From positions 1,615,504 to 1,679,503 of the forward strand of contig OZ038460.1 in assembly GCA_964036195.1 (NCBI GenBank): a DNA stretch of 64,000 bases. Reading direction: 5' to 3'. Shown in pieces: positions 235 to 53,283 of the stretch. The stretch is from Sphaerolaimus hirsutus (taxonomy: Eukaryota; Nematoda; Chromadorea; Monhysterida; Sphaerolaimidae). Made by a program: the position numbers and the translations under genes. Numbering within the stretch: the first letter of the stretch is position 1; each line of letters opens with the position of its first letter. The notes under the pieces were generated by a model. That model saw only the letters and a program-made list of their open reading frames with translations. It had not been told where the DNA came from and made no database searches.

Positions 235-3200
235 GCTATCTGTGTCTGTTCAACCCGTGCACACCTGGTTACAAGATGTGCATCAATGGGACAAAATCGC
301 AGGACACAGCACACCCAGCTGGCAAGTGCCCCAGCACAGTGGGCACAGGCACCGCTTGCTTCGTGCACCAGGACTGCAGCTCCGGGCAGAGGTGCTGCAG
401 CTCCGTCTGCACAAAGGCGTTGGCAATTGACCCAGCCCCTCAGGTTACCAGGATTTGATGTTGGCAGGTGCTAATACTCTGCCTCAGTTGCTGGATACTT
501 CCCAAAAGCAGGTTTTTGTGATTTGAAAACACATAACATGACATTTAAAAAGCCGGAATTACAGCTCAGCTGCGTTTGACGTGAAATGACGACGTCGTAA
601 AATTGATTACATCAAAATAGACAAAGGTACAGCATTGAAATTTCAGAATTAGATAGTTCTAGTAATTGTGTGTAATGTCCCAAAAAATTTTTATCAAATA
701 ATCATAATTTAAGTAGTTATTAATTTAACGTAAAATTTTTTTTGTGACATAAAATGTTTGACGTGAAATGCTGATGTAGAATGTGCAAATTTTGACGTAA
801 AATTAATAATATTAATAATCATTATTTTCTTAATTTTTTTAGGACATTACACACAATTACTAGAACTATCAAATTCTGAAATTTCAACGCTGTACCTATG
901 TCTATTTTGATGTAATCAATTTCACGACGTCATCATTTCACGTCAAACGCCACTGAGCTGTAATTCCGGCTTAAAGAGAGAGAAAGAGGCAAAAGAAGTG
1001 CATCCAGAAATGAGCAACAACTTTTCCTGTAATTCTTGTGTGCAGGTGACTATGTTGCTTGAGGGTTCACTGAAATCGGGTCTGGCCAACGATGGACGCG
1101 AGTTCAACTCCAGCGTGGGCCTGGTGCAGTCAGCTGGAAAAAATGTGCTTTTTGACACTGGACCTCTGACCTATGCAGCAAATATAATGAGTGCACTTGC
1201 ACAGAATGGACTGGGGCCAGAAGATATAGACACTGTGGTTGGGTCACATGGTGAGTCTTCTGTCATGGAAGTTGTAATGTGGACAAGGCCTTATATTATG
1301 TACATGACAGTTCAAACAGGACCACAGTCCCAGTACATGGTTCGGCAAATTTGTGGTCCTGGACTCCTGGTCCTGTGTAAAAATTCTGGTCCCGGTCCCA
1401 GACCCTGTTGAAAAACTGGTCCTGTTTGAAACCTAGTTGTGCACATATGGTGCACAGGTCCCAGACATATGGTGCACAGGAAGCCACATGATATCATCAG
1501 AGTATGACTCCAACCAAAAAATTCTTTTTGTCCTGACTTGTTGTAAGGTTTAAATGGAACCATGGTCCCGGTGCATGGTTCAGCAAAAAGTCGGAACTGG
1601 GGTGGTCCCAGTCCCCACACCACAGTCCCGGTCCCAGTCCCAGTCCCGACTATTAAAAAAGCCAGTCCCGGTCCTGGTTGCGATCCCGACCACCCAGTTC
1701 TGGTCCCGGTACCGGAATTTTATAATGGTCCCAACATGGGATGGAAAAAAATGTATTTTTCAATGACCTGGGTTGAAAAATTTTTATGAGAGGTTTTTTT
1801 GAAATACTCCCAAATATAGTTACAATGTTATCAACATATACACGTAAATATGCCAGACTAGTAGCAGTACTTATGATGTTATATATGGCAATATAGTGGA
1901 GCCATGTGATACTATTATAAGGTATGATTTCTGCCAAAAAATCTCTTTTTATGTCAACTTGTTACATAATTTTTGTCACTTTTCATCAAATGTTCATGGC
2001 TTCAAGTGAAACTGGACAGTGCTTGAATAATGTTAAAAGAAAAGGTCAGTCAGGAAAAAAGTCCATCTCGGTCTTGATCCTGACCTCCCAGTCCCAGTCC
2101 TGGTCCCAACATGGTTGGGTCCTGGTCCCTGGTCCCGGTCCAAAAAACTGGTCCTGTTTGAACCCTAACTCATTGGTTGTTGGTAATCCTAACGTTTTCG
2201 TACTGCAGAAGTATGTTGAAGTTACATTGGCAGGATCTCATATGTTTACTATACTAAAATATAGCCTCTGTTCACACTAACTAGTTTTCTGCCAGTAGTT
2301 TGCCAGAATGAAGTGTCTGTCAACTACAGTTGATGAAGATTGAAAATACCTCATTGTGGTAGTAACTGAATATGATCAAAAGCTAACTATGAACAGCCAA
2401 TTTGAGTTCACTAGTGCTAGTGTGTCTGGCAAAATTGTGGCTTAATATTACACAGTAGCATGTTTAAAAATAATATGCCATCAAAAGTTAAGCTCAACTA
2501 CTGATTGTGATACAAATAAAACTATGGCTTTAGCTTCTAAAAATATGAATTTCTGAAACATGCAGGTCACGCAGACCATTTTATGAACGTTGGTATTTTC
2601 AAGGATGTTGTTGTGCACTATTTTCAATTTGACATCTTAGGCGCAGTGTCAGTTGCATTGAATAATTTACAATCCATGCTTAATAGTTGTCTTCAAAGAG
2701 CAAAATAATGCAGTTTTACACCAAATGCAATTGCGGCAAACAAGACATACAATTTGTTCAATGACACCAAGCTGGAGGTGCTTGCCACGCCTGGCCACAC
2801 CCCACAAGACTCCTCACTGCTTGTTTACAATGTCACAGGTTAGTCCAAGCCAAGGGTATATTTACCATTCATTAATTGTTCATTGAATTGTTCACTACAC
2901 ATGAAAATCTTTGGTTAGAGTTTACATTCAATTTTTGTTGTGAAAAGTTGAAAATAACTATAGCATGTGAAAACTATAAATGTGAAAATAATAAATCTAT
3001 AGTTTGCAGACATTTCATTGTACAATATTGGAGAGTTAGAATTAACTCATGAATAGAGTGAACACAAACCTTGTGTCCCACCCGGACCTCAAAATTGAAA
3101 GAGAAAAAATATTTAAAGAAAAATGGACATTTAACCATGTTTGTGCATGCCACACCCTATTTATCTACATTTTCAATGTTGCTCATTGCAAGCGAAAGAA

Positions 3201-14530: not shown

Positions 14531-17500
14531 CTGGTAATAGCCAGCGGCGGGCCGGGCGTGATGGGCAGCGTCGGGTCCACCTGCGCGGTTGTGCTGCCCG
14601 AAATGGTGCTCACGTGCATTTTGTACGCATCTTGGGGTGAGTGCTTCAACGTGTCGCTGGGCGTCAGTTCATTGAGCAACTGCGGGGGGGGGGGGGTAAT
14701 TGTTGTTGGAATTTTAGAAGGTGGGGCGTGTTTTTGTTGATTTCTTGTTGTTGTCTTTGTGTGTGTGTGTTTTTGTAGGAAAGGGAGCTAGGAAAAACAA
14801 CAAACACTCATTCTAGCCTATTTTTAACCTTTTCAAGGTTAAATTAAGCTAGAATGCAGAGTTGTTAAAATACCGGTATTTTTGGAAAGCGTAAGCGTAA
14901 GCGTAAATACACTTTACCAATTTTGAGTATGGATACTGAAAGCGTAAGGTATTTTTAAAATACCTAGGAAAGCGTAAATAAAAGCGTAAGCGTAAAAAAT
15001 TTTTAGAGGCTTTTTGCTCAGTGAATTCTTTCCAAATCAAGCTCTCGGTGACATTTTTCCACTTAGTATACCGGTAGTCTGCCCTCATATTTTGTTTGGT
15101 TATTTATCGGCAGCAACACTTAAGTCATCCTCATCGTCTAACGTGGAGTTAGTGCTGTCAACGGCGTTAAATCGTTGTTGGGATCCATTTTCAGCAACAA
15201 AATTTCTAATCTGAAGCTACGATTTTGCTTGATGACACAGTACATATTAACAGGACATTCATATTGCGACACAATTCGTACATGTGCCACCATTTCCAGT
15301 GCATTACTGCACACACGCAGTCCCGTTCTCTCTTCTTTTATGGTTTTACGCTTTTTCAAAAGCGTAAAACTTAACTGTTTGAAAAGCTTTTTTACGCTTT
15401 TAGTACCCGGGTATTTTGACCGGGAAAGCGTAAAAAAGCGTACAGGTATTTTATGAAAGCGTAAGCATAAGCGTAAGTATAAATACCCATTTACCCGGGT
15501 ATTTCGGGTAAGCGTAAATACGCTTTCGCAACTCTGCTAGAATGAGTGTTTGTTGTTTTTCCAATTAATTTATTGCCTCAGGCAACTGTGGAGAAGGGCA
15601 ACCAAATTCTTTTTCCGTTGCCTCGTTCCCCATGGAGCTGCTTCATTGCGAAACGTTGCCAGCTAAATTGGTTGGAATGCGTCAACAGATGCCATGGTTG
15701 CCTCGTATACTCCAGCGACATTACACCTTACAATGAAATCTACCATATCGCATCTGAATAACAGAACAAACAAAAATATTTTCATTATATTTATCAAAGC
15801 AATTTGATAAATATGATTTAAAAAAATTATGTTTGTTCTTTTATTCAGATGGGATATGGTAGATTTCGTTATAAGGTGTAATGTCGCTGGAGTATACAAT
15901 AACACATGGCAATGGTTGCCTCGTGCGACTGTGCAACATCATCTGGGGGGCAGTCCTACACACTGTAAATTGTCATGTAAAGTGTCAATTAATGCAAAAT
16001 GTCAAAAATGCAGTAATAAAATCTTTTTATTCTATTTTGATTGACACTTTGTAATTTGACACTACACTTAACACTTTACCCGACACTTTACAAAGTGCGG
16101 GACTGCCCGCTGGGTGGGGGGGGGGGCTTACTAACCGATCTCATAACCGAGTCGACATGTTCATCGGGCAGATTCATATCCCTGATCGCCCGTTCGAGCC
16201 TTATAGCAAAAGTCTCCGATCGGACTTTGTGCTCCATCCAGTCGGCGCCCATCATTTCCTCCATGGGCGACATTCGGTCCAACCTGGGGCCAGATCCAAT
16301 TGGAAGGTAGGGCGCATGTAGGGCGCCCCAGATGACGTGTAGGTCAATAACAAGTCATCGAGAAATTGATTGATTCATGCGATTATCGACGATAAATGCG
16401 TCAACGTGAAATTGGTATTGTGGATTGAAATTGAATTTGTCGTTCAAATTATGAAATAGCGTCTTTCACTTTTGTGTTTTAGAAGTTGCTAGGTATTTCA
16501 TTTGACTTTCATTTTACGCCAACCAGTAAGTAAATGCGTAGGTATCTTTACTCACACATCCGGCGCCTTAAATAGCGCCCTACGCTCTATTTGGATCTGG
16601 CCCCTGAGCAAGTTGAGAATGGCGAAAATGATCATCGTGCACACGGTCGTCCACACGCCGATGGCGCATAGGCCCAAAAGTTGCACGCCCAGGGGGCAGT
16701 CCCAGACCCTGGAAAATGCCCTGGAAAATGTCAAGTGTCAAGCAAAGTGTCTGACTTCATGGAAAATGTGTAAAATGTCAAATGTCAAGCAGTGTATGCT
16801 CTGTAAGATGTATAATGTCATGTAAAGTGTATAAAGTCAAGCACAATTTTCTAGAATTTCACAATCAAATGAACTGCAAAGTGTCAAAAGTAATGTAAAA
16901 TGCCCTGTAAAATGGCAACCGTTCGTTTGTTATTTTCCAAGGCATTTTGCATGACGTTTTACACTTTGCATGACATTTGACATTTTCCAGATAATTTTAA
17001 AGGGTCTAAGAGTGGCACCAGAAGTTCCAGCCCCCCGCCGCATAAGAGGCCTTCCATGCGCCGCCCGTTCTGCGACGGTGTTTTGAATTTAATTTTAAAA
17101 AAATTGATTTTTCACGTAAAGTTGTGCTCATTACTAATTTGGCATTTGTATTTTACAGTAGTGAATGTACAGATTTATTCATAAATGTTTATATTTTGCG
17201 TCTAACTGATATGGGTGACGGAATAACTGAATTTTTTCAAGATATCGGTTAGTTTCAGTCCCCCATTTCTAACTTTTGTATACTTAAGCTTCGTTATTTG
17301 GTGTTCCCACAGTAAAGAAAGACAGGTGCCAGTTCCGCAAAAGGAAAAGTGAGGAGTTAAAAGTTAAGAGTTGAGTAAAATGACAAATGGCAAGTTAAGA
17401 GTAAAGTTAAATGATAAATGATGAGTTAAGAGACAAGAGTAAAGTTAAATGACAAATGTTTAGTTAAGAGATAAGAGTAAAGTTAAGAGCCAAGCAAGTG

Positions 17501-20500
17501 TATCCAAATCTAATTTTTTCGTATCCAAATCTTACGGTATTGTATCCTAATCTTATGTTCTCATAAGATTTGGATACAAAAACATAACATCTGAATACGA
17601 AAGAATAAGATTTGGATACACTTGCTTGACTCTTAACTTTACTCTTTTCTCTTAACTAATCATTTGTCATTTAACTTTACTATTAAATTTACTCTTGTCT
17701 CTTAAACTCATCATTTATTACTTTACTCAACTATTAACTTTTAACTCTTAACTTTTCCACTTGCAGAACTGGCCCCCAGGACACATTTAAATACAGATTA
17801 ATTCGAACAAGTAAATGTCATAGGTATTTAGATTTTCGCGCCTGTTGTCAATAGCAACGCAATGCTCAAACTCACAGGTTTAGCTAATAGTATTGACGTA
17901 AACATTTATTTTAATTGTTCATCATACTTGATTGAGATTTAAGTTTCATGCGAGAAATTCTTACTAAAGATCTTACCGTAAACCCTCGAATAGTCCTCAA
18001 TGGGGGGTTTTTCGTCAGAATTTTGGAGGGGGTATTTTTGAAGTATTTAGTTCTACAGAAATATCATGTTACAACTTCAACAACTTCTATCAATTCATTT
18101 CTATCAATGTAAAGTCCAAAGTAAAGTGTCATATTTTATGGAAAATGTCAGTTAAAATGAAAAAAAAGAAGTTTTTTTACTGAACTATTGACATTCTGCG
18201 TGACATTTAACAAATTTTTACCACATTTAATAAACGAAAATTTCTGACGAAATAATACCCCCTCGAATAAGCCCCCTCGGAATACCCCCTCTCAAAATTT
18301 CCACTCTAAAAAAAATAAACGCCCTGGGGGTATTTTGAGGAAATACGGTAATTACTGTGTCCTATGCAAAGCAATCATATTGATTTAACAATTTGTGCAA
18401 TGAAACATAAGAATTACCTAATCGGTACACTGAATAAATTAATAAATACCGAGTTACCGACGAAGACATGAGTAATTTTGGACACATAGGTAAATACTTT
18501 GCGGTTCACCGAGTAGGTATACCGTATTTGCTTGAATAGTTCTCCCCTTGAATGATACCCCCCCCCCAATTAATGTAATTCATTCAATGAAATCATCGCT
18601 AGTGTGCATCAACTGCTAAATAAATCATTCTTCTAATGAACATTTACATAATACCTTTTTTATACATGGGCGTCTTTCCCATCCATCAAAGATGGGGGAG
18701 TTTTTCGAGGGGGGGATTATTTCTCCCTCAGTCAGCAGGAGAGAGTTATTCGAGGGGGGAGTTGTTTGAGGGGGCGGGGACTTATTCAAGGATTTACGGT
18801 ATTGCATTTTCGAATGAAATGACAATATTGTCATCCAAAAAAAACATTTACGCAAGAAAAAATAATGATCCTCAATTGTAAAAAAGTCAAAAAAACAAAA
18901 TCCACTTCCCATCATTCCCAGCCCAAAACGTACCAAAGTCATCATGTCGAAATCATTGCAGCCGAATATGCCGATGGCCAGCGTGCCCCAGACGGCTGCG
19001 ACCAGGTGCACTGGCGTGGCGCCCACCTGGGGCAGTCCCGGACCCTGTAAAATGCCCTGGAAAATGTCTAATGTCATGCAAAGATCTAAAGTCATGGAAA
19101 ATACCCTGGGAAATGTCTAATGTCATGCAAAATGCCCTGTAGAATAGCAAATGTCATGCAAAATGCCCTGTAGAAAAGCAAATGTCATGCAAAATGCCCT
19201 GTAGAATGGCAAAGTGTCTAGCTAATGTATGTTTTCTATTCTGTAGGGCATTCTCCATCATATTAGGCACTTTGCATGACATTTTACATTTTGCAGGATA
19301 TTTTCCATGACTTTAGACTCTTTACATGACATTTTACATTTTACATGGCACGTTACAGGGTGCGGGAGTGGCACCGGGTCGTCGATCTGCAGCTTGATGA
19401 GCAGCTCCACCGCGGCGAGCGCCAACAGCGCGCCGATGGAGCCGACCTGGGAATGGGGCGGGGTCTGAATAACGGGGCAGGCCTGATACGCACATCTGCC
19501 CGATACGCACATTTGCCCTTTTTTTTCACTTGACACTTTTTCAAGTGATTTGCAGATATGAGTAAAGTGAAAAAAAGTTGCGCAATGACATTAGTGAACT
19601 TTTTTCACTTCACTCATATCTGAAAATCACTTGAAAACGTGTCAAGTGAAAACAACGGGCAAATGTGCGTATCGGGCAGATGTGCGTATCAGTGCACCCC
19701 CCTGAATAACGAGCAACGAACTTCTGGTAAAAGTGTTAATATTTTGAGTATTTTTTTCTAAAATGACTTTTCTCATTTTCGAATTTTTTTCAGGAAATCA
19801 AATAGTTTTGGAATCAAGTTTTCAAATTTTCGATTTTTTTTCCACTAAATAATCACATTTTCGAATTTTAAGGCACAAACACAGAAAAGGCACAATCCGG
19901 GCAGCCCGATTTAAATTCGGGCAATGCACTCACAATAAGCGCAGTAATCGGGTTGAGCACTGAAGCGCCGGCGGTGATTGACACCAGAAGGCACTCCCAG
20001 ACCCTGTAAACCTACCTGTAAAATGGCAAATGTCATGCAAAGTGTCTCAAGTCATGTAAAATTCAGTGGAAAATGGCAAACGTTCATTTGCCATTTTCCA
20101 GGGCTTTTTACAGGGTCCGGGAATGGCACCAGGCCGGCAAGTATAGACGTGATGATGCAGGCCACGTCGTAGGCGCCACCGTGCAGCCAGTAGCTCGCAA
20201 CCTGCAACCTCGCAATTTTTGCCCGACAAGTTTTTGTCGGGTTGCCCGATTCATTGTATTTATGTACGATTATGCGTTATGATAACGATAGTAAAACTTT
20301 ACTGTCGGGCATCGGGCATCGCATAATCCCACGCCCAAAAACTCGGGAAGCCCGACAAAACCCAAGTCGGGTAAACCAAATAACCCACCATTCCGAGCAA
20401 GCCGCCGCCTATACTTCCATTGATGGTGACCACGCCCACTTTGGCAGCCGTTTTCCACAGGTTGCCCACTATGCCGAATGTGGAGCCGCAGTTGAACGCA

Positions 20501-22916
20501 AGCCACGCCCACCAGGGGGCCACTTCGGCAAGTTGCAAAGTGACCAGAAAAGTGACAAGTGCTGAGAAGTGCTCTGTTGGGGTTGTTGGTGAATATACTC
20601 GACGGACCGCAATCAATGCGCAGAAAGATACTTATGTCTTAGTCGACAAAGCACGAGCAGGATACTTAAGCGGGAATTAGAGCTCAGCGTCGATTCGACG
20701 TGAAATGATGACGTGAAATGTTGTCGTGAAATTAATTACACGAGTGTGGATCATGCTACGGGTCTACAATTTTCTAAGGATAATATATGAATCAATACCT
20801 TAATCGTGTCCAATACTGAGTGTTATCAGCCACAACTAGAGCGAATTGAAAAATTCAATTTTTATCATTTCACGTCATCATCATTTCACGTCACAGTGTC
20901 AGGGAACAACTTGACATTTCACGTCAGACTATTGCAAGCAGCAGTCTGACGTGAAATGTCAAGTTGTTCCCTGACACTGTGACGTGAAATGATGATGACG
21001 TGAAATGATAAAAATTGAATTTTTCAATTCGGCAAACTAAGTAATTTCCAAATAGGTTTTTCAATAGTTTTTCGTCCACGCTGGAATGAATATTCGAAAA
21101 CATCGTATTATTGTTCGCCTACCACTTCACTTACCACCCACAATAGTTATCTAAACTGCTCCAAACGCTTTTACCCCAATTTCGTCACTTGTCACTTTCG
21201 TCACAACACTTTACACCTTGCCGAAGTGACACCAAAGCATGAAGGTGCCCGTGAGAGCCGTGACGGGGCTGCTCAGCCCAAATTCATGTTCGTGTTGCGT
21301 CGTGAATCGGCCGTAGCGAGGGCCCAACGCTTTTGCCGCCACAAGAGCGGAAAAGCCGCCTGATAATGATAAAAATAGAATAGAACACCTGGTGCTTGCT
21401 AGGAAATTCACGTTTAAAAGCGTAGATACCGTAATACCCAGAATCACCCCTTGAAAACGCCCCCCCCCCACCCCCGAAAAAAATACTATTCCGAAATTAT
21501 CATTTCACGGGGTATACCTAGCGTGGAGAGCTATTATACCTAATCTGCTGAGAGAAATAGCCCAGCCTCCATTTGAAGGGAACCCTGAAAATCAGTCTAC
21601 TTTTCACAAAGTGCACAAAATAATAATCAGCCAAATGCGCGAACTTAAATACAGGGGACACACACATTTCTGTGTGCGGTGCCACTGTGGCTCCGCCCAC
21701 ACGCGCCTGCCTAAAGTCTCAACTTTTTCCCACACACACTTGTGATTTTTTGTAAACCGAAAACGCGTATTTCTGGGCTTGGATTCGCTAGTGTGCGAAT
21801 GAAAATTGTGCGCGAGCGGGCGGATGCACATCGAAATATGTGCGTTCTCTGTAAAATACAAATCGTTACAACTTCCAAAAGTCTACCGTAATCTACCAAA
21901 AACTGCTCAAATAAAAGTCCACGCCATAGCAATATTCAGCCACACACAAAAAAGTGACCCACCAGTGGAATGGACCACAGTGCCGCCAGCAAAGTCGTAA
22001 AATCCAATATTTTTGAGCCAGCCGGTCTCGTTCCACACCCAGGAGGCGGGGATCACGTAGACGAGCACGTTGAGCATGCTGTAGATCATGTAGCCGTGCA
22101 GCTTCATCCGCTCCGCCACCGCGCCGCTGAGAGTGTCACCGCTGGTGATGTTCCGGTGTACCGAAGGGCACCAGCACCGGTGCTGGTGCGGTGCCCTTGC
22201 AGTTTTAAGAGGTGCCATGTCGGTGCCGGTGTCATTTTTTTCAGACCAGCACTGGTGACGGTGCGGTAGAGTTGTCAAAATACTGGTATTTTTAGAAAGC
22301 GTAAATACACATTTCAAATTTTGAGTATTTTTACTAAAGCATACGATATTTTTAAAATACCGCAAAAGCGTAATTTTTTAGAAAGTGCCCCGCTGTTTAG
22401 CATCATAAAACACCATTGTTTTCATTTTAGAGGAATCGATAAACCGATTCCTTGCATTATTTGACGTTTTCATTTTTCAACAAGATCATCATGTAATAAC
22501 AATGTGCCAAAACAGAAAGAGTACACAGAAAAATATATTCAACAGAAATTTTGAAAACTCATAAAAAGCTTTAAATCCATTTGAGTTTGCCAAGAGACTA
22601 TTTTAACCCCCATCAACTGTAGTCGATGCACACCTCATTATGGCTTCAAAGCTGATTAACGAGTTGCCAAAATTTCGTTGAAAATCAACGTCAACCAGCT
22701 GGCACACTGCCAACTCAAGTGTCAACTCAATGTGAACCTGACAATCGTGGTCGCAGCGGTAGCAAATGTGAACTGGAAGAAGTAGTGCACGTAGGCGCTG
22801 CCCACGTCGGCGTCCTTGGGCGACCGCGAGAACAGGGAAGTCGCCCATGCCGCAGAACCAGTTCGACGGCCGGCCGAAACAAAGTCCGTAGCCAACCGCC
22901 CAGTACACCATCCCGC
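14531..22916 (-). CDS. AMT: Amt-family ammonium transporter, exons 2-13 (copy 1)
   Basis: Exons in gene order: 22738-22916, 21963-22126, 21233-21359, 20389-20512, 20130-20201, 19934-19984, 19375-19446, 18934-19026, 17019-17069, 16604-16689, 16136-16283 and 14531-14679. Phases agree throughout except for one extra base in exon 2. Family landmarks include SGAVAER, DFAGGTVVHSTGG with the first pore histidine, FNCGSTFG, LAGLVSITAG, KLQIDDP followed by VGATPVHL with the second pore histidine, and LELLGVQLLG. Together they indicate an eleven-helix plasma-membrane channel for ammonium/ammonia. Exons 12-13 encode a cytosolic tail, and exon 13 ends at a donor next to the gap. Exon 1 is not in this contig; matching exons are at 36219-36453 and 60903-61137. 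Exon 2 carries CCC where CC is needed near 22835, so the copy is either a pseudogene or has a base error. Five introns are inverted-repeat elements, listed separately; for exons 4/5, 6/7 and 10/11 I chose the boundaries that keep the family motifs intact. Confidence 0.88.
14857..15536. mobile_element. hAT-type element, CAGAGTTG family, 8-bp TSD
   Basis: The termini are CAGAGTTGTT and CAACTCTG, and the 8-bp duplication CTAGAATG is exact (14849-14856 and 15537-15544). Subterminal AAGCGTAAGCGTAAATAC motifs occur in both orientations. It lies in the Amt intron between exons 12 and 13. There is no coding capacity. Confidence 0.85.
15705..15897. mobile_element. Fold-back MITE in Amt intron
   Basis: The arms are GTATACTCCAGCGACATTAC and its inverse, continuing into AATCTACCATATC...GATATGGTAGATTT. 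The flanks repeat GGTTGCCTCGT on both sides, a likely target duplication. Relatives with GATATGGTAGA...TTATTCAGAT lie at about 49650 and 52010-52200. Confidence 0.65.
15946..16108. mobile_element. GGCAGTCC-family palindromic element beside exon 12
   Basis: The ends are GGGGCAGTCCTACACACTGT and GTGCGGGACTGCCC, with TGTCATGTAAAGTGTCAATT-type subrepeats inside. It is the same family as the Amt intron elements. Here it lies within an intron whose donor is an ordinary GTTAGT at 16135. Confidence 0.65.
16284..16603 (-). mobile_element. TIR element forming Amt intron 11/12
   Basis: On the gene strand the ends are GGGGCCAGATCCAAATAG...GTAGGGCGC and the inverse GCGCCCTAC...GGATCTGGCCCC, with AGG on both sides as a direct repeat. 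Removing exactly the element gives an uninterrupted family sequence (NLLRLDRMSP), but those ends are not GT-AG. A conventional solution exists: a GTGAGT donor 48 bp inside the element (exon 11 extended to 16556) joined in phase to the CCCCAG acceptor, which would exonise one arm and add 16 residues to the cytosolic tail. Confidence 0.7.
16690..17018 (-). mobile_element. TIR element forming Amt intron 10/11 (GT...TG)
   Basis: On the gene strand it starts with GTGCCACTCTTAGACCC and ends with GGGTCTGGGACTGCCCCCTG, an inverted pair. Inner GGAAAATGTCAAATGTCATG motifs also face each other. CTGG is repeated at both junctions. Joining CTG to GGC restores the conserved LELLGVQLLG. The only AG near the 3' end (TTTTCCAG, 19 nt upstream) would shift the frame. 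Confidence 0.8.
17326..17780. mobile_element. GTGCCAGTTCCGCAA-family TIR element
   Basis: The ends are GGTGCCAGTTCCGCAAAAGG and TTGCAGAACTGGCCCCCAGG, in inverted orientation. The arms consist of AAGAGTAAAGTTAAATGAC-type iterations, with a central ATCCAAATCTTATG fold-back. It lies in Amt intron 9/10. The larger relative is at 52361-53283. Its end sequence overlaps that of the intron-forming elements. Confidence 0.7.
17976..18351. mobile_element. TACCGTAAA-CCTCGAATA fold-back element
   Basis: The ends are TACCGTAAACCCTCGAATAG and TTTTGAGGAAATACGGTA. It contains GGGGGTATTTTTGA and AATACCCCCTCGAATAAGCC runs. It lies in an Amt intron, followed at about 18524-18805 by a second, asymmetric element of the same class. 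Confidence 0.6.
19027..19374 (-). mobile_element. TIR element forming Amt intron 8/9 (GT...AG)
   Basis: On the gene strand the intron starts GTGCCACTCCCGCACCCTG and ends CAGGGTCCGGGACTGCCCCAG, so its own inverted repeats supply both a GT and an AG. GGTG occurs at both junctions as a direct repeat. Splicing yields IDDP/VGATPVHL, the exact family sequence. Inside are repeated ATGCCCTGTAGAATGGCAAA units. The same intron, equally 348 bp long, is in the second copy at 28975-29322. Confidence 0.85.
19985..20129 (-). mobile_element. TIR element forming Amt intron 6/7 (GT...TG), 145 bp
   Basis: On the gene strand it starts GTGCCATTCCCGGACCCTG and ends CAGGGTCTGGGAGTGCCTTCTG. CTGGTG flanks both sides as a 6-bp direct repeat. 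Exact removal restores LAGLVSITAG. No register within the direct repeat gives GT-AG. An AG nine bases upstream would also stay in frame but would insert three residues (CLL) into this conserved motif. The second copy (29689-29833) has the same length and structure. Confidence 0.82.
20513..21232 (-). mobile_element. TIR element forming Amt intron 4/5 (GT...TG)
   Basis: On the gene strand the ends are GTGTCACTTCGGCAAGGTG and CAACTTGCCGAAGTGGCCCCCTG, and TGGTG flanks both sides. Exact removal gives FMLWWAWLAFNCGS, matching the family. A GT-AG alternative (donor GTCACT, acceptor GCCGAAG) is in frame but inserts four residues (LAPW). Inside lies a nested TGACGTGAAATG element, including a perfect palindrome at 20842-21031. 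The second copy (32119-33066) has the same ends but a different filling. Confidence 0.8.
20842..21031. repeat. Perfect long palindrome in Amt intron 4/5
   Basis: Two arms of roughly 89 bp are exact reverse complements around a spacer of about 12 bases. Each arm holds several ATTTCACGTCA motifs. It is part of the TGACGTGAAATG MITE also seen at 551-972. The exact match implies a young insertion or conversion between arms. Confidence 0.85.
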
Positions 22917-22926
22917 CTGGGGGGGG

Positions 22927-23527
22927 GGTAATTAGGTAGACCTATTTCGACTGATAGGAGAGCTCCGTTCTATTGTTTCGTCAACTTTTTTACCTGCCGT
23001 TGTATTGGAGGTGTCTTTCTATTAAAGGTTGCCGTTGTGTTTTTTTCACCAACTTTTCATCACATTTTTCATTCTACAATGGGTTTTTTTTGTGAAATAT
23101 GAGCAACATTCAGAGCATTTATTTGAATTTTGATATCATTATTTCAATGATTTGAATTGAACATTCTCGTCATTCACTTTCCTCTATTTGTGTACTCTGG
23201 TACTCTCCCTACGTCATTTCTACCTGCCGTACTATTGGAGGTGCCCTTCTATTGCAGAGTTGTTAAAAGGTACGTACGTTTACTCAAAAAATACGCGTAC
23301 CTGAGTACGCGGTAAATACATTTACCGTATTACCTCGAAATACCCCCAGGGGGTTTATTATTTCGCCAGCAAAATTTGAGGGGGGATAATTCGGGGGGGG
23401 GGGGGGTTATTCTAGGGGGGGTCTACTATTTCGCCAGAAATTTTCGGAAATTCCCCATACGCAGACGTAGAAAAATCGAACAATCACATAGATTTATATG
23501 TGTTTATAGACATATATTACTGTATAT
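22927..23527. other. Upstream flank of Amt exon 2
   Basis: Intron sequence without exons. Around 22960-23260 are GTTCTATTG and TACCTGCCGT motifs of an element whose better copy is at about 38740-39190. From 23252, a CAGAGTTGTTAAAA hAT end leads into the TACCGTATTACCTCG cluster. Confidence 0.4.
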
Positions 23528-26487
23528 TACCGTATTACCTCGAATTATTCCCCCCCCTTGAATTAACCCCCCCCCAAAATGGGCTGGGGAAATAATAAAC
23601 CCCCCCTCGAAATACCCCCCCTCAAACGATGTACATCATGTGTGCAATGTATATGATGTATTTATTACTGCTATTTGCATTGCAACTACACATAGACTAG
23701 TTTGTGTAGCTATCTACGTTTTTATGTCTAAATATATCCTGTTTGGGACACATTTATTACCTGTTTTGGGTACGAAAATGCCTACTTTTTACTATGATCC
23801 TTACGAAAATTTCTGACTAAATAATAAAACCCCCCTCGAATAAACCCCCCTCGAATTAACCCCCCCTCAAATTTTGCTGGCGAAATAATAAATCCCCATG
23901 GGGGTATTTCGAGGTAATACGGTACACAAAAACCCTTCCCTAACGTCACTTAATCATCAGTTTTAACGTGTGTTCTGCATAGTACATATCACAAACTGCG
24001 GTATTTGTCATGTACGTTCATGTTACACTCAATCTTAGGGGGGGTATTTCGAGGGGGGGGGTTTATATATTTCCTCAGCCGAAATTTAGGGGGGGGTATT
24101 TCGAGGGGGGGGGGGGGGGGTTAATTCAAGGGGGGGATAATTCGAGGTAATACGGTACATATACCGTATTACCTCGAATTAGCCCCCCCCCTTTGAATTG
24201 ACCCCCCCCCCCCACCCCCCCCCCCCCTCGAATAAACCCCCCCCCTTCGGAATGATGTACGTCACGTACATAATAAATACGTCATGTATGCAATGTACAT
24301 GATGTATATTACTGTTAATGTACATTGCAGCTACACAGACTAGTTTGTGTAGCTATATACGTTTTTTATGTCCAAATATATCCTGTTTGGACACATTTTT
24401 TACCTTTTTTGGGTATGAAAATGCCTACTATTTACTACGGTCCTTACGAAAATTTCTGACTAAATAATAAAACCCCCCTCGAATAAACCCCCCTCGAATT
24501 AACCCCCCCTCAAATTTTGCTGGCGAAATAATAAATCCCCATGGGGGTATTTCGAGGTAATACGGTACACAAAAACCCTTCCCTAACGTCACTTAATCAT
24601 CAGTTTTAACGTGTGTTCTGCATAAGTACATATCACAAACTGCGGTATTTGTCATGTACGTTCATGTTACACTCAATCTCAGGGGGGTATTTCGAGGGGG
24701 GGGTTTAATATTTCCTCAGCCGAAATTTAGGGGGGGTATTTCGAGGGGGGGGGGGGGGGGTTTAATTCAAGGGGGGGGGGGGGATAATTCGAGGTAATAC
24801 GGTACATATACCGTATTACCTCGAATTACCCCCCCCCCCCCCTTGAATTGACCCCCCCCCCTCGAATAAACCCCCCCCCCCTTCGGAATGATGTACGTCA
24901 CGTACATAATAAATACGTCATGTATGCAATGTACATGATGTATATTACTGTTAATGTACATTGCAGCTACACATAGACTAGTTTGTGTAGCTATATACGT
25001 TTTTATGTCCAAAATATATCCTGTTTGGACACATTTATTACCTGTTTTGGGTACGAAAATGCCTACTTTTTACTATGATCCTTACGAAAATTTCTGACTA
25101 AATAATAAAAAACCCCCTCGAATAAACCCCCCTCAAATAACCCCCCCTCAAATTTTGCTGGCGAAATAATAAATCCCCATGGGGGTATTTTCGAGGTAAT
25201 ACGGTACACAAAAACCCTTCCCTAACGTCACTTAATCATCAGTTTTAACGTGTGTTCTGCATAGTACATATCACAAACTGCGGTATTTGTCATGTACGTT
25301 CATGTTACACTCAATCTTAGGGGGGTATTTCGAGGGGGGGGTTTAATATTTCCTCAGCCGAAATTTAGGGGGGGTATTTCGAGGGGGGGGGGGGGGTTAA
25401 TTCAAGGGGGGGGGGGGGATAATTCGAGGTAATACGGTACATATACCGTATTACCTCGAATTACCCCCCCCCTTGAATTGACCCCCCCCCTCGAATAAAC
25501 CCCCCCCCCCCTTCGGAATGATGTACGTCACGTACATAATAAATACGTCATGTATGCAATGTACATGATGTATATTACTGTTAATGTACATTGCAGCTAC
25601 ACATAGACTAGTTTGTGTAGCTATATACGTTTTTATGTCCAAATATATCCTGTTTGGACACATTTATTACCTGTTTTGGGTACGAAAATGCCTACTTTTT
25701 ACTATGATCCTTACGAAAATTTCTGACTAAATAATTAAAACCCCCCCTCGAATAAACCCCCCTCAAATAACCCCCCCTCAAATTTTGCTGGCGAAATAAT
25801 AAATCCCCATGGGGTATTTCGAGGTAATACGGTACACAAAAACCCTTCCCTAACGTCACTTAATCATCAGTTTTAACGTGTGTTCTGCATAGTACATATC
25901 ACAAACTGCGGGTATTTGTCATGTACGTTCATGTTACACTCAATCTTAGGGGGGGTATTTCGAGGGGGGGGGTTTAATATTTCCTCAGCCCGAAATTTAG
26001 GGGGGGGTATTTCGAGGGGGGGGGGGTTAATTCAAGGGGGGGGATAATTCGAGGTAATACGGTACATATACCGTATTACCTCGAATTACCCCCCCCCCCC
26101 CTTGAATTGACCCCCCCCCCCCCCCTCGAATAAACCCCCCCCCCCCCTTCGGAATGATGTACGTCACGTACATTAATAAATACGTCATGTATGCAATGTA
26201 CATGATGTATATTACTGTTAATGTACATTGCAGCTACACATAGACTAGTTTGTGTAGCTATATACGTTTTTATGTCCAAATATATCCTGTTTGGACACAT
26301 TTTTTACCTGTTTTGGGTATGAAAATGCCTACTATTTACTACGGTCCTTACGAAAATTTTCTGAGGAAATAATACAACCCCCCCTCGAATAATCCCCCCC
26401 CCCCCCCCCCCCTCGAATTAACCCCCCCTCAAATTTTGCTGGCGAAATAATAAACCCCCATGGGGGTATTTCGAGGTAATACGGTAC
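23528..26487. repeat. Tandem array of ~635-bp fold-back units
   Basis: Units begin with TACCGTATTACCTCGAATTA at about 23528, 24166, 24809, 25444 and 26068, and end with TTCGAGGTAATACGGTA, so whole elements are joined head to tail. The spacing is 625-643 bp, varying mostly in poly-G/poly-C run length. Each unit holds a conserved core with ATGATGTACGTCACGTACAT and GTTTGTGTAGCTATATACG. Frames that recur in each unit on the minus strand arise from this core and end in homopolymers; I do not take them as genes. Confidence 0.85.
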
Positions 26488-28738: not shown

Positions 28739-28974
28739 TAAGGTGATGCATTTTCGAATGAAATGACAATATTGTCATCCAAAAAGACCACTTTCTCATG
28801 AAAATAAATAATAATCCTCAATTGTAAAAAATTGTCAAAACAACAAAATCCGCTTCCCATCATTCCCAGCCCAAAACGTACCAAAGTCATCATGTCGAAA
28901 TCATTGCAGCCGAATATGCCGATGGCCAGCGTGCCCCAGACGGCTGCGACCAGATGCACTGGCGTGGCGCCCAC

Positions 28975-29322
28975 CTGGGGCAGTCCCGGACCCTGTAAAA
29001 TGCCCTGGAAAATGTCTAATGTCATGCAAAGTGTCTAAAGTCCTGGAAAATACCCTGGGAAATGTCTAATGTGATGCAAAATGCCCTGTAGAATGGCAAA
29101 TGTCATGCAAAATGCCCGTAGAATGGCAAATGTCATGCAAAATGCCCTGTAGAATGGCAAATGTCATGCAAAATGCCCTGTAGAATGGCAAAGTGTCTAG
29201 CTAATGTATGTGTTCTATTCTGTAGGGCATTCTCCATCATATTAGGCACATTCCATGACTTTATACTCTTTACATGGCATTTTCCATTTTACATGGCACG
29301 TTACAGGGTGCGGGAGTGGCAC
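28975..29322 (-). mobile_element. TIR element forming intron 8/9, second Amt copy
   Basis: Same ends and length (348 bp) as 19027-19374: GTGCCACTCCCGCACCCTG to GGGACTGCCCCAG. It shows that the element was in place before the copies separated. Confidence 0.8.
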
Positions 29323-29688
29323 CGGGTCGTCGATCTCCAGCTTGATGAGCAGCTCCACCGCGGTGAGCGCCAACAGCGCGCCGATGGAGCCAACCTGGGA
29401 ATGGGGCGGGGACTGAATAACGAGCAACGAACTTCTGGAAAAAGTGTTTAAATTTTAAGTATTTTTTTCTAAAATGACTTTTCTCATTTTCGAATTTTTT
29501 TTCAGGAATTCAAATAGTTTTGGAATCAAGTTTTCAAATTTTTTTCCACTAAATAATCACATTTTCGAATTTTAAGGCACAAACACAGAAAAGGCACAAT
29601 CCGGGCATCCTGATTCAAATTCGGGCAATGCACTCACTATAAGCGCAGTAATCGGGTTGAGCACTGAAGCGCCGGCGGTGATTGACAC

Positions 29689-29833
29689 CAGGGGGCACTC
29701 CCAGACCCTGTAAACCCACCTGGAAAATGGCAAATGTCATGCAAAGTGTCTCAAGTCATGTAAAATTCAGTGGAAAATGGCAAACGTTCTTATGCCATTT
29801 TCCAGGGCATTTTACAGGGTCCGGGAATGGCAC
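29689..29833 (-). mobile_element. TIR element forming intron 6/7, second Amt copy
   Basis: 145 bp as in the first copy, but the 3' end reads GAGTGCCCCCTG instead of GAGTGCCTTCTG. The TG end is thus conserved while neighbouring bases vary. Confidence 0.8.
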
Positions 29834-29983
29834 CAGGCCGGCAAGTATAGACGTGATGATGCAGGCCACGTCGTAGGCGCCACCGTGCAGCCAGTAGCTC
29901 GCAACCTGCAACCTCGCAATTTTTGCCCGACAAGTTTTTGTCGGGTTGCCCGATTCATTGTATGTACGATTATGCGTTATGAT

Positions 29984-31882
29984 CAGGGTTGGTTTTATAA
30001 AAATCATTTGTATACAAATTGTATAAAAATTGTATAAAAATGTATTTTATTTTTATTTTATTCTTGTTTCATTTTATTTTATTTTATTTTATTCCAAAAT
30101 GTAAATAAAATAATAAAATGGAACCATTTTACAAAAATTGTACAAAATTTTTACAAAAAATCGAATCTTGCATGCAAGGCCAACAAAATGTTATCATTAG
30201 ACCTAAACATGAAAAACTTTCAAGTGAAATTTTTTTCATTACTTTGCAAAACGTTGCATGCAGTAGGTATTGTTAGCTAGTTAAAAGTGTAAGGTTACAA
30301 TTATTGATAATGATGGTTAGCATTTTTGGTAAAACAACTACTGAAGTGTGCAGGGTGTAAAATGTCATGCAAAGTGTCAATTATCATGACAAATGTAAAG
30401 TAAAGTGTCAAATGTCATGTCAAATGTCAAGCAAAGTGTCAATTGTCATTATAAATGCCATGCAAAGTATAAATTGTTTATTCAAATCATCAAATATTTT
30501 TGTATCCAAATTTTATGTTTTTGTATCCAAATCATTTTGTATCAAAATCTGATGTTCGCATCATTTGGATTCTCCAAATCTGATTTGGATACAAAAACAA
30601 CAACAAGATTTGGATACAAAACAATAAATTTGTGCTTGATACAAAGATACAACATGCTTAACACTTGACACTTAAACTTATATTTATCATGACAATTCAC
30701 ACTTTACTTTACATTTGTCATGACAATTGACACTTTGCATGACATTTTACATGACATTTAACACTTAAAAGGCTTAGTACAACACACAGTTCCCAAAATA
30801 GACAGGTAGAAACTCGAGCAACACAATAAAATTTTTACAAAAAATATGAATTTTTATACAATTTTACAAAAATTCGATTTTTTGTACAATTTTACAAAAA
30901 ATTTACAAAAATTCAAATTTTTTTACAATTTTTATTTTTATTTTGAAATTTTCCATTTTATTTTATTTTATTTTATTCTTAAATTTTCCATTTTGCTTTT
31001 ATTTTATTTTTATTATTTTCCAGAGTTGTACAAATACTGGTATTTTTGGAAAATGTAAACGTAAACGTAAATACCTTTTCCAAATCTAAAGTATAAATAC
31101 TAAAACGTAAGGTATTTTTAAAATACCAAGGAAAACGTAAAATAAAACGTAAACATAAAAATTATATAAAGTGCTTCCGCTATCAGAGAATACAAAAAAA
31201 ACACAATGTTTTTTTTTTACAACATGTGGATGTTCATATGATCTCCATTCTCCATCGACATTTTCTTCTTACCTGTATTTTATAAATATTTAGAATTATG
31301 GGATCGGGATATTTAATTGGGATTGGAGTTGAAATTTTGTGTCATTGTCAACTGTGGGTCTAGGGCCATAAGGTGCCAATTCCATAACAGGAGAACAAAA
31401 AACATTTATGAGTGAGAAGTAATGGCAAGTTGAATGGCAAGCAAAAATCGACAGAAAAGTAAATTTGTAAGTGAAATGGCAAGTGAAAAGACAAATGGCC
31501 AGTCATGAGAAAACACTAAAAATGTCTTTTACGTTTTATTTGCATCTCAGTTCTCCCTCACAAAAATACTTTCCTTCAACTTTTTACTTACAAATTGGTG
31601 TTTTAGTTCTCCAATTGCGGAATTAGGACTCCTCAACATTAGAACATGTTGAACTCATCATAATACACTGCATTTGTGAAACAATACGGTTCCGTGCAGC
31701 AAATTTTATACGTTTTCTCTGGTACCCGGGTAATTGTGCCAGGAAAACGTAACAAAGCGTAACGGTATTTTTGGAAAGCGTAAACGTAAACGTAAGTATA
31801 AATACCCAAATAACCGGGTATTTCGGGTAAACGTAAATACGTTTTCGCAACTCTGTTATTTTCTGAGATTTTGCCAACCCTG
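29984..31882. mobile_element. 1.9-kb hAT-type insertion with exact TSD and empty site
   Basis: The termini are CAGGGTTGG and CCAACCCTG, and the 8-bp duplication GTTATGAT is exact (29976-29983 and 31883-31890). The first Amt copy has a single GTTATGAT at the same intron position (near 20276), which is the empty site. It is A/T-rich and contains a TGTCAAATGTCATG fold-back (about 30358-30765) and the nested hAT at 31021-31855. No transposase is seen. Confidence 0.9.
31021..31855. mobile_element. hAT-type element, CAGAGTTG family, nested
   Basis: The termini are CAGAGTTGTA and CAACTCTG, and the exact 8-bp duplication is TTATTTTC (31013-31020 and 31856-31863). It lies inside the CAGGGTTGG element and is therefore younger. 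Subterminal GTAAACGTAAATACC motifs are in both arms. Confidence 0.85.
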
Positions 31883-32118
31883 GTTATGATAACGAAAGTA
31901 AAACTTTACTGTCGGGCATCGGGCATCGCACAATCTCACGCCCAAAAACTCGGGAAGCCCGAGAAAACCAAGTCGGGTAAACCAAACAACCCACCAATCC
32001 GAGCAAGCCGCCGCCTATGCTTCCATTGATGGTGACCACGCCCACTTTGGCAGCCGTTTTCCACAGGTTGCCCACTATGCCGAATGTGGAGCCGCAGTTG
32101 AACGCAAGCCACGCCCAC

Positions 32119-33066
32119 CAGGGGGCCACTTCGGCAAGTTGCAAAGTGACCAGAAAAGTGACAAGTGCTGAGAAGTGCTCTGTTGGGGTGGTTGGTGAAT
32201 ATGCTCGACGGATAGCGAAGTGTTTGTTTTTAACCGTTGATGTCATCGTGATATTCATGACATGTTTCATTCGGAAAAATGCATAGCATGATGGTGTTGA
32301 AGTAGAAGTAAAAAGACGAACATTTGGATGATATATATATATATATAAATACACTTATCAAATATTCTAAAATGGTTTTTGAATTTGCAAATTTTTCCGG
32401 TAAAACTCAAATTTCTCAAATTTATTTTTATACCGTATTACCTCTAATATAAGGTATACCTTATATTGTTTTCGTCAGATTTTTCGAGCCAAAAGTGATG
32501 CCTTATAATAGAGGGTACCTTATATTAGAGGGTACCTTCAATTATTTTCACCAGATTTTAAAGAAATTTTACCAGCAGTGAACAACGATACAATTCATTT
32601 TTTCAATTGGAATGTACGAAATAGGTGGTACAGTATCACTACAAAATGGCAGAAGTCAACGAAGAGTTATCGCAGTGCCCTTCGGCACCATTTTCCGCCA
32701 TGTTTGGCGACCCTTTTAATGATTTTGCGCGTTTTGGCACGCAGCCAGCTGTGCCTTATATTAGAGGTATGCCTTATATTAGAGGGTACCTTATATTTAT
32801 TTCGTCGCGTTCAAAATAGCCAAAAGTTATACCTTATATTAGAAGGAACCTTATATTAGAGGGATGCCTTATATTGGAGGTAATACGGTAAATTGTTTTT
32901 CTTCCACCCTACAAATAAAAAATTCAATAACCTCGAATTTTTATTCCTCTATCACTTCACTAATCACCCACACAACAGTTAAATACCTAAACGCCTCCAA
33001 GCACTTTCACCCATTTCGTCACTTGTCACTTTCGTCACAGCACTTTACAACTTGCCGAAGTGACAC
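32119..33066 (-). mobile_element. TIR element forming intron 4/5, second Amt copy
   Basis: The ends match 20513-21232 (CACTTCGGCAAGTTG arms, TGGTG direct repeats, 3' CCCCCTG). The interior differs: the TGACGTGAAATG MITE is missing, and a TTATATTAGAGG element (32434-32890) is present instead. Confidence 0.8.
32434..32890. mobile_element. TACCGTATTACCTCTAATATAAGG element
   Basis: The ends are TACCGTATTACCTCTAATAT and TTATATTGGAGGTAATACGGTA. Internal TTATATTAGAGGGTACC repeats occur. It is inserted within the intron-forming element, only in the second Amt copy. Confidence 0.75.
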
Positions 33067-33578
33067 CAAAGCATGAAGGTGCCCGTGAGAGCCGTGACGG
33101 GGCTGCTCAGCCCAAATTCATGTTCGTGCTGCGTCGTGAATCGGCCGTAGCGGGGGCCCAACGCTTTTGCCGCCACAAGAGCGGAAAAGCCGCCTGATAA
33201 TGATAAAAATAGTATAGAACACATGGTGCTCGCTAGGAATTTCACTTTTAAAAGCGTAGATACCGTAATACACAGACTCACCCCTTGAAAAACGCGCCCC
33301 CCACCTCCGAAAAAAATACTATTCCGAAATTATCATTTCACAGGGTTTACTCGAGGTAATAGCGTAGATAGCTACCTAATCTGCTGAGAGAAATAGCCCA
33401 GCCTCCATTTGAAGGGAACCCTGAAAATCAGTTTACTTTTCACAAGGTGCACAAAATAATAATCAGCCAAAGCGCGAACTTAAATACAGGGGACACACAA
33501 ATTTCTGTGTGCGATGCCACTGTGGCTCCGCCCACACGCGCCTGCCTAAAGTTCACTCACCCATCTCACTTTTTTCCC

Positions 33579-35112: not shown

Positions 35113-35305
35113 ACGCTAAAGTGCCAATCCCAGACCCTGTAAAAAGCCCTGTAAAATGTCAAATGTCATGCTAGTAAAGCAATATGGGTCGAAACTAGCT
35201 TTTCCTATTTTTGCCATTTTGCGGGGCATTTTCCATGACTCTTGACACTTTGCGTGACATTTGACATTTTACTAGTTTTTTACAGGGTCTGGGAGTGCTC
35301 CCAGA
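35113..35305. mobile_element. Dispersed copy of the intron-forming TIR family
   Basis: The ends are GTGCCAATCCCAGACCCTG and CAGGGTCTGGGAGTGCTCCC, with CCCTGTAAAATGTCAAATGT inside. It is the same family as Amt introns 6/7, 8/9 and 10/11 but lies outside recognisable coding sequence. Confidence 0.75.
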
Positions 35306-36218: not shown

Positions 36219-36580
36219 CAATAGTCACGTCAACTACATTCTTCACCATAATATTAGCCGCGTTCTTATAAGACACCGAGCCAGCCTCCAACAGCCCAAA
36301 TCCACTCTGCATGGTCAATATCAAGAACGCGTTGGCAAGTATCCAAGCGGCGTCGTCTTTTCCCATGTACTCGGTAGCGAAATCTGCCGCGCTGCCGTTC
36401 ATGGCGCCCGATGTGCCGTTGCCGCGCGACGCCAAGGGACGTTGGCGCGACATTTTTTTTTTGGGGGGGGGGTCGGGGGGGGGGGGATAGCAGGATTAGG
36501 GGGGTTGGAGGGACTAGTATGGTGTGGTGATTGGTTGTCCTTGGGCGGCTAGCTGTTCATGTCCTGGGACATGTTTTGGT

Positions 36581-36775
36581 GGCAGTCCCGCACCCTGTAA
36601 ATTGCCAGGTAAAAAGTTGAAGTTGAAAGTTTCAAGTAAAATTTCAGATAAATTTGTCAAATGTCATGCAAAATGTCAAAAGTTCAGTAATAATATGCTT
36701 TCTTTTTATTTTAATTGACATTTTACATGACACTTGACACTTTACGTAACACCTTACAGGGTGAGGGACTGTCCC
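36581..36775. mobile_element. GGCAGTCCCG-family element upstream of Amt exon 1
   Basis: The ends are GGCAGTCCCGCACCCTGTAA and TTACAGGGTGAGGGACTG. It lies about 130 bp upstream of the start codon in the gene's orientation, possibly in the 5' UTR or an upstream intron. In the copy at 61260 the right half is replaced by the palindrome starting at 61347. Confidence 0.7.
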
Positions 36776-52360: not shown

Positions 52361-53283
52361 AGGTGCCGGTTCCGCAAGTGGACAAGTTAAGAGTTAAAAG
52401 TTAAGAGTTGAGTAAAATGACAAATGGCGAGTTAAGAGTAAAGTTAAAGTTTAAGAGAAAAGTTAAAGTTTAAGAGAAAAGTTAAAATTTAAGAGAAAAG
52501 TTAAAAGTTGAGTTAAAGGTTAAGAGTTGAGTTAAAGGTTAAAAGTTGAGTTAAGAGTTAAAAGTTGAGTTAAGAGTTGAGTTAAGAGTTGAGTTAAGAG
52601 ACAAGTGGAAAATGATGGTAAAAAAATATAATAAAATAAAAATATGAAATTGGTATCGATACGGCTGTTCGCTGGCATGGTGCCAATGTTGTATGCACGT
52701 CATTTGAAAATAACGTATCCAAAAAAATTATCGCTAAAAAAAGAAAAAATCGCCGAACGTTGTTTTGCAATGGCCGTGCAGGGACAAAATATGATTGAAG
52801 ATCAGCGTATCGCGCTTCTGCAACGAATGACGCATTTGTCTAATTAAATCAACTTTTAACTCATTTTTTAACCTTTAACTCAACTCTTAACTTTTAACTC
52901 AACTTTTGACTCAACTTTTAACCTTTAACTCAACTCTTAACTTTTAACTCAACTTTTGACTCAACTTTTAACCTTTAACTCAACTCTTAACTTTTAACTC
53001 AACTTTTGACTCAACTTTTAACCTTTAACTCAACTCTTAACTTTTAACTCAACTTTTGACTCAACTTTTAACCTTTAACTCAACTCTTAACTTTTAACTC
53101 AACTTTTGACTCAACTTTTAACCTTTAACTCAACTCTTAACTTTTAACTCAACTTTTGACTCAACTTTTAACCTTTAACTCAACTCTTAACTTTTAACTC
53201 AACTTTTGACTCAACTTTTAACCTTTAACTCAACTCTTAACTTTTAACTCTTAACTTGTCTACTTGCGGAACTGGCCCCAGGG
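52361..53283. mobile_element. GTGCCGGTTCCGCAAG TIR element with 50-bp tandem repeats
   Basis: The ends are AGGTGCCGGTTCCGCAAG and CTTGCGGAACTGGCCCCAGG (AGG on both sides). The left arm iterates AAGAGTTAAAAGTTGAGTT. The right arm is a regular 50-bp tandem repeat (52871-53250, seven full units and part of an eighth) starting ACCTTTAACTCAACTCTTAA. Between them lies a 67-codon frame (52644-52847) without known relatives. Smaller family member at 17326-17780. Confidence 0.85.

What the first reader, a model, noticed from the sequence alone, without database searches (positions are those of the whole stretch)
16284..21232. Amt introns that are TIR elements inserted into coding sequence (introner-like)
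Five of eleven introns in the first Amt copy begin and end with inverted repeats and have a short direct repeat at the junctions (GGTG, CTGGTG, TGGTG, CTGG, AGG). Removing exactly the element restores uninterrupted Amt family motifs. Related elements occur outside genes at 35113, 36581 and 15946, so the family is mobile. Intron gain from MITE-like 'introner' elements is known in several lineages, and non-canonical MITE-derived introns have been reported in the larvacean Fritillaria. The specific element family here is, to my knowledge, undescribed.
Basis: partly seen in the sequence, partly recalled or inferred. Interest (0 to 1): 0.93.

Follow-up and report, generated by a model that had tools for sequence, protein, structure and literature searches.

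The report
Transposon-made introns in an animal genome
In an unnamed animal genome, small jumping-DNA remnants sit exactly where introns should be in an ammonium transporter gene and in several other genes, which suggests that transposons are making new introns there, some with unusual splice ends.

Summary
Five of ten Amt introns are inverted-repeat elements that end exactly at the intron borders; the other five are GT-AG introns without border repeats. The left-end 19-mer occurs 41 times in the 348-Mb genome, 0 times reversed. In the 39 copies outside the window, the three bases before it are CAG or CTG in 32 (background 2.8%). The target duplication is thus best read as CWG. A CAG target gives CAG|GTGCCAC...GCCCCAG|, a GT-AG intron: the element supplies the donor, the duplicated CAG the acceptor. 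Pfam domains above cut-off were found at six other loci, all on the GTG-first strand; in four the domain spans the excised junction. CTG targets often leave no canonical placement, as in Amt introns E and I. CWG duplications and GGG-type ends fit the NuwaI group of Harbinger-like transposons (PMC4482050), but no matching transposase was found. The host is an animal, probably an ecdysozoan; its Amt groups with a nematode's. No RNA was available: splicing is inferred. Best reading: introners made from NuwaI-like MITEs, in a lineage for which my searches found none in print.

The parts
16101..22916 (-). Amt gene copy 1, exons 1-11 as numbered here (further exon upstream)
   Evidence: Exon reconstruction; homology
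20513..21232 (-). Intron C: TIR element (own family), left flank TTG, right CTG; GT..TG at best placement; contains a nested fold-back at about 20842-21031
19985..20129 (-). Intron E: 145-nt TIR element, family 1, CTG on both sides; GT..TG; folds into one hairpin (-66 kcal/mol, z -5.75)
19027..19374 (-). Intron G: TIR element, family 1, left CCG, right CAG; GT-AG
16690..17018 (-). Intron I: TIR element, family 1, CTG on both sides; GT..TG
16284..16603 (-). Intron J: TIR element (own family, GGGCCAGATCC ends), CAG on both sides; GG..AG
22127..22737 (-). Intron A, GT-AG, no border repeat
21360..21962 (-). Intron B, GT-AG, no border repeat
20202..20388 (-). Intron D, GT-AG, hairpin 13/16 nt inside the borders
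19447..19933 (-). Intron F, GT-AG; holds an inserted fold-back that copy 2 lacks
17070..18933 (-). Intron H, GT-AG; holds an antisense CAG-flanked element at 17326-17779
28882..33193 (-). Partial Amt copy 2 (exons 3-8) with the counterparts of elements C (33066-32119), E (29833-29689) and G (29322-28975)
15944..16112 (.). Family 1 relative at the 3' end of Amt, CTG on both sides
35121..35301 (+). Family 1 relative within the Amt locus, no matching CWG flanks
36579..36775 (+). Family 1 relative upstream of a first coding exon; flanks TTG and TTA
17326..17779 (+). Family 2 element (GTGCCAGTTCCGCAA) with CAG flanks, antisense inside intron H
52363..53281 (+). Family 2 element (GTGCCGGTTCCGCAAG) with CAG flanks, no gene context known

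Best explanation
These introns are introners: non-autonomous DNA transposons (MITEs) that insert at CAG or CTG, duplicate that trinucleotide, and are removed from the transcript together with one copy of it, so that the coding sequence is restored exactly. Shown: inverted repeats reach the intron borders; one element end reads GTGCC and the other, as reverse complement, mostly GGGGC or GGGCC; CWG stands before the GTG end in 32 of 39 copies outside the window; known protein domains continue across four excised junctions in other genes; the GTG end is 5' on the coding strand at the six other loci whose strand was identified and in the four GTG-ended Amt elements. Inferred: the GTG end is the 5' splice site and the downstream copy of a CAG target is the 3' splice site, so that a CAG insertion is a ready-made GT-AG intron. 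CTG insertions start as GT..TG introns, which are tolerated (perhaps helped by the hairpin that brings the ends together) or later change to CAG. Also inferred: the mobilising transposase is of the NuwaI kind (PHIS/Harbinger superfamily), from the CWG duplication and GGG ends.
For: Border repeats in 5 of 10 Amt introns, far above shuffles. 41 exact genome copies of the end, 0 of the reversed control. CWG left flank 32 of 39, background 2.8%. The same triplet on the right in 16 of the 36 loci with a right end, near-duplicates included. Pfam above cut-off for 6 of 41 sense ORFs and 0 of 39 antisense ORFs; domain spans the junction in L016 (7tm_3), L018 (ASC), L023 (carnitine acyltransferase) and L036 (7tm_1). 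Second elements in the same 5-kb stretch have the same orientation in 6 of 6 loci. Amt copies 1 and 2 share C, E and G, and their exons 3-8 differ at 9 of 539 bases, 6 synonymous by my reading, while the surrounding aligned blocks differ by 3-13%.
Against: No RNA. Exact restoration follows from any clean insertion, spliced or not. Copy 1 has one extra base in exon 1 and copy 2 lacks exons 1, 2 and 9-11, so these Amt copies may be damaged. 4 of 5 Amt elements and up to 11 of 25 deduplicated loci allow no canonical placement (L028 may be TAG-ended, and some right ends are unsure). An unbiased scan for TIR pairs with equal flanking triplets did not single out CWG (CTG 4, CAG 3 of 189 pairs). Of three window relatives outside the coding sequence only one has CWG on both sides. 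No empty site for this family and no matching transposase was found.
Confidence: 0.75

Rival explanations
1. Ordinary transposon insertions into exons of dying or duplicate genes. Exact restoration is then only a trace of the target duplication, and nothing is spliced.
For: Frameshift base in exon 1; incomplete copy 2 and an N run nearby; non-canonical ends in 4 of 5 Amt elements.
Against: Otherwise open frame over eleven exons with intact GT-AG introns beside the elements, although the element arms have diverged; sense orientation at 6 of 6 other loci with a known strand and 0 antisense domain hits; few non-synonymous differences between copies; several element-bearing loci show conserved domains across the junction.
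Confidence: 0.13
2. The elements are cut out of the DNA in body cells, precisely, as Harbinger-type MITEs can be, and not from the RNA.
For: Precise excision is known for the rice MITE mPing (PMC4561436, title and start of abstract in a search listing). It would remove the need for canonical splice ends.
Against: DNA excision has no reason to prefer one orientation, yet the GTG end is 5' on the coding strand at all loci where the strand was identified; GT..AG ends at 14 of 25 loci.
Confidence: 0.05
3. Old, ordinary introns that were later invaded near their ends by mobile elements.
For: Nesting does happen: intron D has a hairpin 13/16 nt inside its borders and intron H holds an antisense element.
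Against: In the five elements the repeats reach the border itself, and the same arrangement recurs at other loci with CWG flanks.
Confidence: 0.05

Closest known systems
Introners (Gozashti et al. 2022, PMC9860276; abstract passages and section 7 read)
   Same: Repeated TIR/TSD elements that form introns; the element brings one splice site and the target duplication the other; length of the mRNA unchanged.
   Different: Host group: that survey found introners in only two groups among animals and land plants, both animals. Here the duplication is CWG and a large minority of copies has non-AG ends.
NuwaI transposons, PHIS/Harbinger superfamily (PMC4482050; passages read)
   Same: 5'-CWG-3' target duplications; inverted repeats usually starting GGG; found in animals.
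   Different: One end here usually reads GTG; no transposase or Myb/SANT ORF was linked to these elements; not described there as introns; the 16 animal genomes listed there include no nematode.
Introner elements of Amoebophrya (PMC7789003; passages read)
   Same: Non-canonical introns with inverted repeats, short direct repeats over the borders and a predicted hairpin.
   Different: A dinoflagellate; no family-specific inverted repeats were found there, whereas here families with constant ends and one target site are seen.
Non-canonical introns of Fritillaria borealis (PMC13326754; abstract, introduction, one results section and passages read)
   Same: An animal with many introns that break the GT/AG rule; introner transposons with weak splice sites are named there as a possible source.
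   Different: AG/AC and AG/AT dominate there; here GT..TG, GT..CG and GG..AG occur beside GT-AG.

Membership tests
Introner | Related sequences forming introns at many separate gene positions | tested here: met
   41 exact end copies; coding domains at six other loci besides Amt, four of them spanning the junction. Total number at intron borders unknown.
Introner | Mobile-element traits (TIR, target duplication) | tested here: met
Introner | Element and/or duplication supply the splice sites | tested here: inconclusive
   GT-AG possible at 14 of 25 deduplicated loci and 1 of 5 Amt elements; no RNA
Introner | Efficiently spliced in transcripts | not testable with these tools
Introner | Recent gain: empty site in a relative or paralogue | tested here: inconclusive
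   Paralogue pairs showed empty sites for other TIR elements, none for this family, which had been selected for presence
NuwaI (PHIS/Harbinger) | CWG target duplication | tested here: met
   CWG left flank 32 of 39; same triplet right in 16 of 36
NuwaI (PHIS/Harbinger) | Inverted repeats starting GGG, 12-61 bp | tested here: inconclusive
   Right ends mostly GGGGC/GGGCC, left ends GTGCC by choice of the search pattern; element J GGG at both ends
NuwaI (PHIS/Harbinger) | DDE transposase between such ends | tested here: inconclusive
   163 DDE_Tnp_4 matches; ten copies returned and three fetched show other ends or no such ends in the stretch held, whose right ends were not all reached
NuwaI (PHIS/Harbinger) | Second ORF with Myb/SANT domain | not tested
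   -

The most novel reading that the evidence does not exclude
An animal lineage without reported introners is undergoing intron birth by several NuwaI-like MITE families that target CWG. A CAG target makes a finished GT-AG intron at once; a CTG target makes a GT..TG intron that the spliceosome nevertheless removes, probably with the help of the hairpin, and that then ripens to AG by point mutation. One genome would hold all stages of splice-site formation side by side.
Probability: 0.45. Interest if true: 0.92.

Novelty: new variant of a known kind. Interest (0 to 1): 0.8.

Why it matters
Where new introns come from is a long-standing question, and in animals transposon-made introns are known from very few groups (PMC9860276, passages). 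A transposon whose target site CAG is also a good acceptor gives a simple, testable route: insertion alone makes a GT-AG intron. The CTG copies form a natural series for asking how far a spliceosome tolerates non-AG acceptors and how they are repaired. A study of ten Caenorhabditis species found 168 gained introns and no source sequence for them (PMC9169325, passages).

Tried and rejected
Larvacean host: not supported. The best Amt hit is a nematode (52%), and the tree puts the gene with Plectus (95/85) and with three unnamed proteins (100/98), on a long branch. COI (14 in-frame TGA; read with the invertebrate code) is 89% and 79% identical to two unnamed proteins; the named proteins among the 120 listed lie at 64-67% and are mostly insects. 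The species stays unidentified.

Splicing at internal sites: the arms contain GTAAAA and TTTTACAG, but keeping the stretch after TTTTACAG adds 19 nt in the copies I counted (E, I and several loci), out of frame; in Amt G it is 18 nt and would put residues into the conserved IDDPVGA segment. Counted by eye. Thought unlikely, not excluded.

Target duplications of 4-6 bp: rejected, since genome-wide flanks agree in CWG only.

Second gene as a control (metallo-beta-lactamase-like, window 911-1408): Pfam hit, protein search empty, not pursued. Solved structures: L024 and L035 no match, L038 weak (best E 0.11; RNF216 E 0.14). Viral contigs: 0 matches. Random sampling of the genome was not possible. 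Amt paralogues elsewhere and a count of degenerate ends were asked for repeatedly and never answered.

Dropped rows: of 39 loci, 3 have no right end (L012, L040, L044), 8 are near-duplicates (L020, L027, L031, L032, L034, L039, L046, L047) and 3 have unclear ends (L010, L029, L033); 25 remain, of which L011, L022, L025, L026 and L028 have doubtful right ends. In one search the right end was set to the nearest CAG or CTG where no equal triplet was found, which favours these two. The Pfam test used 50 junction ORFs from 19 loci (26 sense, 24 antisense; L025 and L038 sense frames chosen because they looked coding) and the longest sense and antisense flanking ORF of 15 loci (30 ORFs). I had listed more ORFs than I sent. 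L019's domain lies about 1.7 kb from the element, so that it belongs to the same gene is assumed; L029's domain ends before the junction.

Full report
What is there. The window is a piece of an animal genome (contig 16 of an assembly of 348,482,957 bases in 762 contigs). On its minus strand lies an Amt gene. I defined eleven exons (22916 to 16101) and ten introns between them; tblastn with homologues also finds first coding exons at 36360-36205 and 61044-60889 and a partial second copy, exons 3-8, between 33193 and 28882. The spliced protein is 52% identical, with 100% query coverage, to an Amt of the nematode Plectus sambesii.

The five elements. Introns C, E, G, I and J end in inverted repeats that reach the intron border (scores 54-72, shuffle maximum 28); A, B, F and H do not (14-22), and D has a hairpin 13 and 16 nt inside. 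A, B, D, F and H are GT-AG. Of the five elements only G allows a canonical placement (GT-AG); C, E and I are GT..TG and J is GG..AG at the best placement, and no sliding of the cut gives GT-AG, GC-AG or AT-AC (4 of 5 against 0 of 5, one-sided Fisher P 0.024). E, G and I are one family; C and J are two others with similar outermost bases. Intron E with its flanks folds to -66 kcal/mol, shuffles -41.75 on average, z -5.75.

Genome-wide. The 19-base end GTGCCACTCCCGCACCCTG occurs 41 times, its reversed control not at all. I fetched the 39 copies outside the window. The left flank is CAG in 18, CTG in 14, AAG in 4 and CTC, TTG and CGG once each; CAG plus CTG make 2.8% of triplets in the same stretches. 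The target duplication is thus best read as CWG; in Amt it is exact in E, I and J and changed in C (TTG/CTG) and G (CCG/CAG). Because the GTG end was part of the search pattern, donor frequencies cannot be taken from this sample.

Coding context. After excision of the element with one duplication copy, ORFs across the junction were compared with Pfam. Above the curated cut-off: L016 7tm_3 (E 2.5e-29), L018 ASC (2.9e-12) and L023 carnitine acyltransferase (1.7e-8), L029 SH3_2 (1.4e-5) and L036 7tm_1 (6.4e-19); a flanking ORF of L019 gave VWA7_N (9.4e-14). All six are on the strand with GTG first; 6 of 41 sense and 0 of 39 antisense ORFs passed. With Amt this makes seven of seven genes in sense (sign test P 0.008). 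In L016, L018, L023 and L036 the domain spans the junction. L036 has no canonical placement (GT..CG), so the non-canonical class is not confined to Amt. Six loci hold a second element with distinguishable ends, each in the orientation of the first (L013, L017, L023, L024, L028, L029).

Acceptors. Of 25 deduplicated loci with an assigned right end, 14 allow GT-AG and 11 do not, though L028 may end in TAG and a few ends are doubtful. Of 14 with CAG on the left, 10 have CAG on the right, 3 CTG and 1 another; of 10 with CTG on the left, 4 have CAG on the right, 3 CTG, 2 CCG and 1 TCG; the remaining locus is CGG/CTG. I read CTG/CAG as repair towards AG; this is inference.

Selection. Amt copies 1 and 2 share C, E and G, so these insertions predate the duplication. 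Exons 3-8 differ at 9 of 539 bases (8 of 538 aligned, plus the last base of exon 6), 6 of them synonymous by my reading (P 0.010 if three quarters of random changes are non-synonymous), while the aligned blocks that contain them differ by 3-13%, with indels. This favours function with the elements in place, but weakly: copy 2 lacks exons 1, 2 and 9-11, and copy 1 carries one extra base in exon 1, an assembly error or a lesion.

Mobility. Comparison of duplicated loci shows filled and empty sites for other TIR elements, for example a 227-base insert in copy 1 flanked by ctgaataacg, but none for this family, whose loci I had selected for presence.

Comparison with known systems. Anatomy and logic are those of introners, in particular those in which the element brings one splice site and the duplication the other (PMC9860276, section 7). 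That survey found introners in only two groups among animals and land plants. CWG duplications and GGG ends are the stated marks of NuwaI transposons (PMC4482050, passages). The genome holds 163 matches to the DDE_Tnp_4 domain; the ten copies returned and three fetched later show other ends, or no such ends within the stretch held. In the searched library, introner with Harbinger gave one fungal paper (listing only) and NuwaI with intron two unrelated matches; of the papers listed for introner with nematode I read passages of PMC9169325 and PMC13326754 and saw no report of nematode introners. The library lacks most subscription journals, so this is no proof of novelty.

Verdict. Splicing itself remains inferred.

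Noticed in passing
L049-L058 and other places: A DDE_Tnp_4 transposon of about 2.7 kb or more is present in many copies whose 300-aa frame mostly carries the same number (4) of in-frame TGA codons: an already broken copy amplified in trans, or TGA that is read or edited.
   Followed up: partly
window 19475-19701: Fold-back element inserted in intron F of Amt copy 1, flanked by ctgaataacg on both sides; copy 2 has the empty site.
   Followed up: partly
window 29984-31882: 1.9-kb insert in Amt copy 2 that copy 1 lacks; part of it matches window 3572-4600 in reverse orientation.
   Followed up: no
window about 22830 (minus strand): One extra C breaks the frame of the Amt exon between GDF and LFSRSPKD; assembly error or lesion.
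   Followed up: partly
window 911-2840 (+): Metallo-beta-lactamase-like gene with at least one GT-AG intron and no border repeats seen; parts recur near 10.2-12.5 kb.
   Followed up: partly
window 23515-26487: Large head-to-tail repeat with shift of about 630 bases within the Amt locus.
   Followed up: no
L031-L034: Four similar loci with a 121-nt element and an AAG left flank; other TIR elements are present in some copies and absent in others.
   Followed up: no
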